Assembly: GCA_003648765.1 (NCBI GenBank)
Contig: QMPV01000006.1
Span: forward strand, 1-39,253
Origin: Candidatus Aminicenantota bacterium
Lineage (GTDB): Bacteria > Acidobacteriota > Aminicenantia > Aminicenantales > Aminicenantaceae
Reading direction: 5' to 3'
DNA length: 39,253 bases
The position numbers and the translations under genes were made by a program. Below the pieces are notes generated by a model. That model did no database searches. It was not told the origin of the DNA and saw only the letters and a list, made by a program, of their open reading frames with translations. Shown here piece by piece: positions 24,629-25,008 of this stretch (the stretch's first letter is position 1; each line of letters starts with the position of its first letter).

Positions 24629-25008
24629 CGAGGTCAGATACTGTATCCAATATTTTGGTGTCAGACACCTACAAACATAGTGTTAGACACCTACAAGCAT
24701 TTTGGTGTCAGACATCTACAAGTATGCTGTATTGCATAAATTTTGGGTGTCTTTTAATTTTTGGGTGTCTGACACTCACAAGTCTCATAAGTAGTGTGTC
24801 GCATAATTTTTAGGTGTCTGACACCCTACACTTGGGTGTCTGACACCCTACACCTGTGACACCCAAAATGTGCGCCTGTGAGAGAGTGAGCAAAAAGACA
24901 CCGTACAATTGCCAATTGGGCTTAGTGTCGGACACTGGGTTAAATCTCTAGCTTTTCTATTCGCTTCTATTTTTAACTTTCGAAGTCTTCATCTTTCACC
25001 TTTGCCCT
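24629..25008 (+). repeat. Palindrome-rich intergenic repeat element, copy 3 (longest)
   Basis: Perfect GTGTC[A/T]GACAC cores at 24658-24668, 24765-24775, 24814-24824, 24836-24846, plus imperfect cores at 24680 and 24705. Aligns to the reverse complements of copies 1 and 2. Confidence 0.87.

What the first reader, a model, noticed from the sequence alone, without database searches (positions are those of the whole stretch)
24629..25008. Three-copy family of palindrome-rich intergenic elements, possibly a non-autonomous mobile element
Seen: three intergenic loci share extended non-coding similarity plus nine perfect GTGTC[A/T]GACAC palindromes. Copy 3 and the reverse complement of copy 1 (2355-2665) align over about 300 bp, including non-palindromic stretches (CCAATTGGGCTT, GACACTGGGTTAAATCTCT, CTATTTTTAA, CTTCATCTTT). 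No intact transposase is present. Established: REP-like palindromes are often dispersed in trans by IS200-like Y1 (RAYT) transposases. Inference: this is a REP/MITE-type family mobilised by a transposase elsewhere in the genome; a structural or regulatory RNA role is an alternative.
Basis: partly seen in the sequence, partly recalled or inferred. Interest (0 to 1): 0.8.

Follow-up and report, generated by a model that had tools for sequence, protein, structure and literature searches.

The report
Scattered palindromic repeats without their transposase
This bacterium's genome carries some 176 copies of one short palindrome in clustered intergenic repeats that look like miniature mobile DNA; in unrelated bacteria the same palindrome sits beside a single-strand-cutting transposase, but here the matching transposase was not found.

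Summary
The nine GTGTC[A/T]GACAC palindromes are exact (0 expected), and the three loci are related: copy 3 and the reverse complement of copy 1 are 83% identical over 250 bp, and copy 2 is a short 148-bp form. Genome-wide there are 176 perfect sites (control 0) and 63 partial matches to copy 3. Two congeners have 18 and 1 sites, and 57 more distant relatives have 0-1. None of the three copies is at its orthologous place in congener G002, but no base-exact empty site was found. The palindrome also abounds in unrelated genomes, where Y1 (RAYT) genes are flanked by it far above chance: 9 of 30 on both sides (0.04 expected), in at least three transposase lineages. Best reading: a tag-less REP/BIME-like family spread in trans by a Y1 transposase. 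In this assembly the cognate gene is missing. The only Y1 gene, on contig 185, has a different (GGGGACAG) flank and belongs to another clade. Copies are old (62-87% identical outside palindromes), so the family is probably a relic or its transposase is unassembled. No GTAG tag, covariation or Rfam match was found. It is a new variant of a known kind.

The parts
24632..25003 (+). Copy 3, the longest copy: left end GGTCAGATACTG..., four perfect palindromes, right end ...TATTTTTAAC..TTCATCTTTCACC
   Evidence: coverage by other loci and end scans; 63 partial matches in the genome
24658..24668 (.). palindrome GTGTCAGACAC
24765..24775 (.). palindrome GTGTCTGACAC
24814..24824 (.). palindrome GTGTCTGACAC
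24836..24846 (.). palindrome GTGTCTGACAC, 22 bp from the previous one
   Evidence: 14 of the spacings under 150 bp are 21-22 bp
24925..24935 (+). variant palindrome GTGTCGGACAC inside the conserved right end (GTGTCGGACACTGGGTTAAATCTCT)
2377..2665 (-). Copy 1, inverted, left end missing
   Evidence: 83% identical to 24747-24996 over 250 bp
2549..2559 (.). palindrome GTGTCAGACAC
2598..2608 (.). palindrome GTGTCTGACAC
2653..2663 (.). palindrome GTGTCTGACAC
9861..10008 (-). Copy 2, inverted, short form with both element ends
   Evidence: left- and right-end scans
9914..9924 (.). palindrome GTGTCTGACAC
9935..9945 (.). palindrome GTGTCAGACAC

Best explanation
A lineage-specific family of non-autonomous, REP/BIME-like repeats. 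Each unit is a perfect 11-13 bp palindrome, (G)GTGTC[A/T]GACAC(C), set in mosaics of about 150-380 bp with fixed, unlike ends and a variable number of palindromes between them. As single-stranded DNA the palindromes can fold into hairpins. A Y1 (HUH) transposase of the RAYT/TnpA-REP kind most likely cut and copied the elements in trans into intergenic DNA. Shown: the palindromes, their clustering, 176 genome-wide sites, near-restriction to this species, absence from the orthologous places in a congener, and the same palindrome flanking Y1 genes in other phyla. Inferred: that a Y1 enzyme acted on the copies in this genome, and that the enzyme has since been lost or lies in unassembled DNA.
For: 176 perfect sites, reversed-pattern control 0; congeners G002 18 and G001 1, 57 other relatives 0-1. 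Sites are intergenic or lie only in short ORFs of 133 aa or less. Recurrent ends without terminal inverted repeats. The stretches around G002's and G001's palindromes share almost no flanking genes with those sampled in this genome; the one shared neighbourhood (surE) has the palindromes on different sides of a tRNA. Orthologous intergenic regions in G002 lack copies 1, 2 and 3. In 22 palindrome-bearing genomes, 9 of 30 Y1 genes have GTGTCWGACAC within 500 bp on both sides, 0.04 expected; sequences shown. Copy 3 folds better than shuffles as ssDNA (z -4.85), copy 1 less so (z -2.4).
Against: No cognate Y1 gene in this assembly or in two congeners, and no decayed remnant at E up to 10 except one unconvincing 46-aa match in G002. 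No base-exact empty site or target rule. Long copies are only 62-87% identical outside the palindromes, so there is no sign of recent movement. A 5-bp arm allows only 1024 sequences, so the same palindrome in other phyla may be convergent.
Confidence: 0.68

Rival explanations
1. The palindromes are binding sites of a host protein (a dimeric regulator or nucleoid protein), arrayed at 21-22 bp, two helical turns, to hold several dimers on one face of the DNA.
For: Perfect dyad symmetry; 21-22 bp is the commonest spacing; palindromes are better conserved than their surroundings, 85% against 74%; no bias to gene 3' ends (8 divergent, 8 co-directional, 7 convergent).
Against: Counts swing from 176 to 1 within one genus and are 0-1 in the rest of the family, which is unusual for a regulon; long non-palindromic sequence is shared between copies; most other spacings show no regular multiple of 10.5 bp.
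Confidence: 0.14
2. The family grew without a transposase, by tandem slippage of 21-bp units and by recombination or gene conversion between intergenic regions.
For: 21-22 bp tandem units; mosaic internal structure; mostly perfect palindromes (107 perfect, 33 with one mismatch) despite diverged surroundings.
Against: Does not explain dispersal to unlinked intergenic places with recurrent ends or the Y1 association in other genomes.
Confidence: 0.1
3. The contig-185 Y1 protein, although its own flank is GGGGACAG-like, moves the GTGTCWGACAC elements in trans.
For: It is the only Y1 gene found and its HUH (NHVH) and Y (YIERNP) motifs are intact.
Against: No GTGTCWGACAC within the held flanks; its 5' flank GTGGGGACAGTTCAC fits the TIRYT motif GGGGWSAS (PMC3733652); it sits in a clade apart from the palindrome-flanked Y1 proteins. 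The 3' flank stops at a contig end, so this is not closed.
Confidence: 0.08
4. A structured RNA element (mRNA stabiliser, terminator or small RNA).
For: Copy 3 folds well as RNA (z -6.0).
Against: No Rfam match; only 1 of 39 two-mismatch sites is compensatory; present between divergent genes as often as elsewhere; strong folding follows from the palindromes alone.
Confidence: 0.05

Closest known systems
REP sequences / BIMEs (GTAG and CGTC super-families; PMC3733652)
   Same: Short extragenic palindromes, over 100 per genome, single or clustered, mosaic with other sequence.
   Different: No GT[AG]G or CGTC tag beside the stem; perfect dyad with a one-base centre; not biased to gene 3' ends; no REPtron in this genome.
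REPINs with RAYT transposases (PMC3116915, PMC2817692)
   Same: Several palindromes per unit that can pair in ssDNA; the same palindrome flanks Y1 genes in other genomes.
   Different: Number of palindromes varies from one to five, with longer mosaic ends; the cognate RAYT is missing here.
TIRYT / TnpA-Y1 subclass 2.1 (PMC3733652, PMC6006769)
   Same: The contig-185 Y1 protein fits by motif: 223 aa, NHVH, YIERNP, GGGGACAG flank. The beta-proteobacterial palindrome-flanked Y1 proteins share NHVH and YIE[LM]NP motifs.
   Different: PMC6006769 found no REP-like sequences beside subclass 2.1 genes, whereas these beta-proteobacterial genes have GTGTCWGACAC on both sides. Assignment to 2.1 is by motif only.
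Bor repeats of Bordetella (PMC1590033)
   Same: Untagged, REP-like palindromes of 26-30 bp near coding regions, in a genus where I find GTGTCWGACAC beside a RAYT.
   Different: Their consensus is only in a figure that is not held, so identity with this palindrome could not be checked.
MITEs
   Same: Non-autonomous, short, dispersed, no coding capacity.
   Different: No terminal inverted repeats here. A true MITE with TTAACCTGG ends lies next to copy 3 and is unrelated.

Membership tests
REP (general sense) | short palindrome, extragenic, high copy number | tested here: met
   176 perfect sites; intergenic apart from short ORFs that overlap the repeat
REP (GTAG or CGTC super-family) | GT[AG]G or CGTC tetranucleotide at the foot of the stem | tested here: not met
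   commonest flanking 4-mers are TTGG, TTTG, TAAG, CAGG, TAGG
BIME | clusters of palindromes with other conserved sequence, in both orientations | tested here: met
REPIN/RAYT system | cognate Y1 transposase gene flanked by the same palindrome in the same genome | tested here: not met
   only Y1 gene lacks it; the assembly is 92% complete and fragmented, so absence is not final
REPIN/RAYT system | the palindrome is RAYT-associated in some genome | tested here: met
   9 of 30 Y1 genes flanked on both sides, 0.04 expected; still 7 after dropping the four genomes chosen through RAYT-bearing loci
REPIN/RAYT system | element insertion or excision (empty sites) | tested here: inconclusive
   all three copies absent at orthologous places in G002 but flanking DNA also differs
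REPIN/RAYT system | transposase cuts the palindrome hairpin in ssDNA | not testable with these tools
   needs a biochemical assay
MITE of a DDE insertion sequence | terminal inverted repeats | tested here: not met
   unlike ends
Known structured RNA | Rfam match or covariation | tested here: not met

The most novel reading that the evidence does not exclude
GTGTC[A/T]GACAC defines a tag-less class of REP used by several separate Y1/RAYT lineages in different phyla, including proteins of a type reported to lack REPs, and in this Aminicenantota species it survives as an orphan family of some 176 sites after its transposase was lost.
Probability: 0.35. Interest if true: 0.55.

Novelty: new variant of a known kind. 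Interest (0 to 1): 0.42.

Why it matters
The described REP super-families carry a GTAG or CGTC tag, and the GTAG tag is what the transposase reads. A tag-less perfect palindrome flanking Y1 genes in several phyla would mean some RAYTs recognise DNA in another way, and would extend REP biology to a poorly studied phylum. An orphan family also allows a test of how long REPs persist once the transposase is gone.

Tried and rejected
Plasmid collection search with copy 3: no match. Literature search for the palindrome string: only unrelated papers. Rfam: none. The weak G002 Y1 match (L191) has no palindrome beside it and looks like chance. A palindrome in G002 near surE at first looked orthologous to copy 1, but it lies on the other side of the tRNA. 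Conservation of the palindromes over their surroundings is measured on alignments partly seeded on palindromes, so I do not take it as proof of selection. Recurrence in many phyla is not taken as homology, since only 1024 such palindromes (per centre base) exist.

Full report
Setting. The window is contig 6 of an unnamed assembly (G000) of 2.77 Mb in 288 contigs, 92% complete. Its only Y1 protein is 94% identical to one from Candidatus Aminicenantes bacterium AC-334-K16 (taxonomy), so the organism is taken to belong to Aminicenantota.

Observation. Nine exact GTGTCWGACAC sites lie in the window with none expected. Copy 3 (24632-25003) and the reverse complement of copy 1 share 250 bp at 83%. 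Copy 2 (9861-10008) is a short inverted form with both ends. The window holds no Y1 transposase frame.

Genome-wide family. There are 176 perfect sites, and none of the reversed pattern. Copy 3 has 63 partial matches. Many sites lie close to contig ends, so the true number is probably higher. Among the fetched loci there are 107 GTGTCNGACAC sites, 33 with one mismatch and 39 with two (the reversed control gives 0, 0 and 25); most single changes are transitions, and only one of 39 double changes is compensatory. Palindrome columns are 85% conserved between copies and other columns 74%. The commonest spacing is 21-22 bp. No GT[AG]G or CGTC tag is present.

Anatomy. About twenty loci begin with a form of GGTCAGATACTGTGTCCAACATTTTGGTGTCAGACACC, and in copy 3 the number of matching loci rises from none to 14 within about 12 bp at this end. 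Some copies have AATTGG before it, so the exact edge is not certain. About ten loci share the other end, GTGTCGGACACTGGGTTAAATCTC...TATTTTTAACGTACGAGGTCTTCACCTTTCACC. The ends are not inverted repeats of each other. Between them the number of palindromes varies. Single-stranded copy 3 folds better than shuffles as DNA (z -4.85) and as RNA (z -6.0), copy 1 less so (z -2.4); palindromes alone would give this. Flanking genes are divergent, co-directional and convergent in near-equal numbers (8, 8, 7).

Relatives. Within the genus, G002 has 18 sites and G001 one; 57 relatives from the family and order have 0-1, and copy 3 finds nothing in the congeners. In G002 the intergenic regions matching copies 2 and 3 are about 200 bp and 80 bp against about 0.9 and 1.2 kb here, without the palindrome, and the interval between tRNA and surE, where copy 1 lies, is also without it. 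The extra DNA here is longer than the element itself, so these are not clean empty sites.

Transposase. The only Y1 gene in G000 (contig 185; L005:1462-2133, 223 aa, intact NHVH and YIERNP motifs) has a GTGGGGACAGTTCAC motif upstream and no GTGTCWGACAC in the held flanks; its 3' side ends at a contig end. That motif fits the GGGGWSAS repeat of TIRYT genes (PMC3733652), and NCBIfam scores it below its cut-off for REP-associated tyrosine transposase. No credible Y1 gene was found in G001 or G002.

The palindrome elsewhere. Four of these loci already held a Y1 gene flanked by the palindrome. In 22 of the genomes I fetched the best 30 Y1 genes, counted palindromes per genome (6-873), and compared with a Poisson expectation: 14 of 30 have a palindrome within 500 bp (1.65 expected) and 9 have one on both sides (0.04 expected). 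Dropping the four genomes that were included because a RAYT-bearing locus was already known leaves 7 both-sided cases. The null ignores that palindromes cluster between genes, but the excess is far larger than that could explain. The flanked proteins fall in separate groups (Treponema, Thermoleophilia, beta-proteobacteria, and a delta-proteobacterial protein), and the contig-185 protein is in another clade; deep branches of that tree are uncertain.

Interpretation. A REP/BIME-like family, most likely dispersed by a Y1 transposase acting in trans and now orphaned or with its transposase unassembled. The mechanism in this genome is inferred by analogy; the association of this palindrome with Y1 genes is shown in other genomes. 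Published REP classes are mostly tagged with GTAG or CGTC (PMC3733652), untagged families are mentioned there as an open question, and PMC6006769 found no REPs beside subclass 2.1 genes. No held paper describes this palindrome as a repeat; the Bor repeats of Bordetella (PMC1590033) could be the same sequence in that genus, which I could not check.

Noticed in passing
window 25406-25576: A 171-bp MITE with TTAACCTGG...CCAGGTTAA inverted ends, next to copy 3; 41 matches in this genome, up to 97% identical, and over 25 in congener G001 but none seen in G002. Looks recently active; its transposase was not sought.
   Followed up: partly
L005:1462-2133 (contig 185): Only Y1 gene of the genome, TIRYT-like, with a GTGGGGACAGTTCAC flank; the contig ends about 170 bp after it.
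   Followed up: partly
L249, L250, L254, L255-L258, L260, L267: Y1/RAYT genes of Treponema, Burkholderiales, Thermoleophilia, Bordetella and Achromobacter with GTGTCWGACAC on both sides; not found described as REPs in the held papers.
   Followed up: yes
window 25011-25178: Sequence just beyond copy 3 is 66-76% similar to stretches near other palindromes (L059, L070), perhaps a further repeat module.
   Followed up: no
window 1-69: Truncated tRNA gene at the contig start (by eye tRNA-Pro, TGG), 96% identical to G002; not reported by ARAGORN, probably because it is cut.
   Followed up: no
window 10074-10137: Purine-rich GAA/GAAAAA microsatellite beside copy 2, with a similar stretch in G002 (L044).
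   Followed up: no
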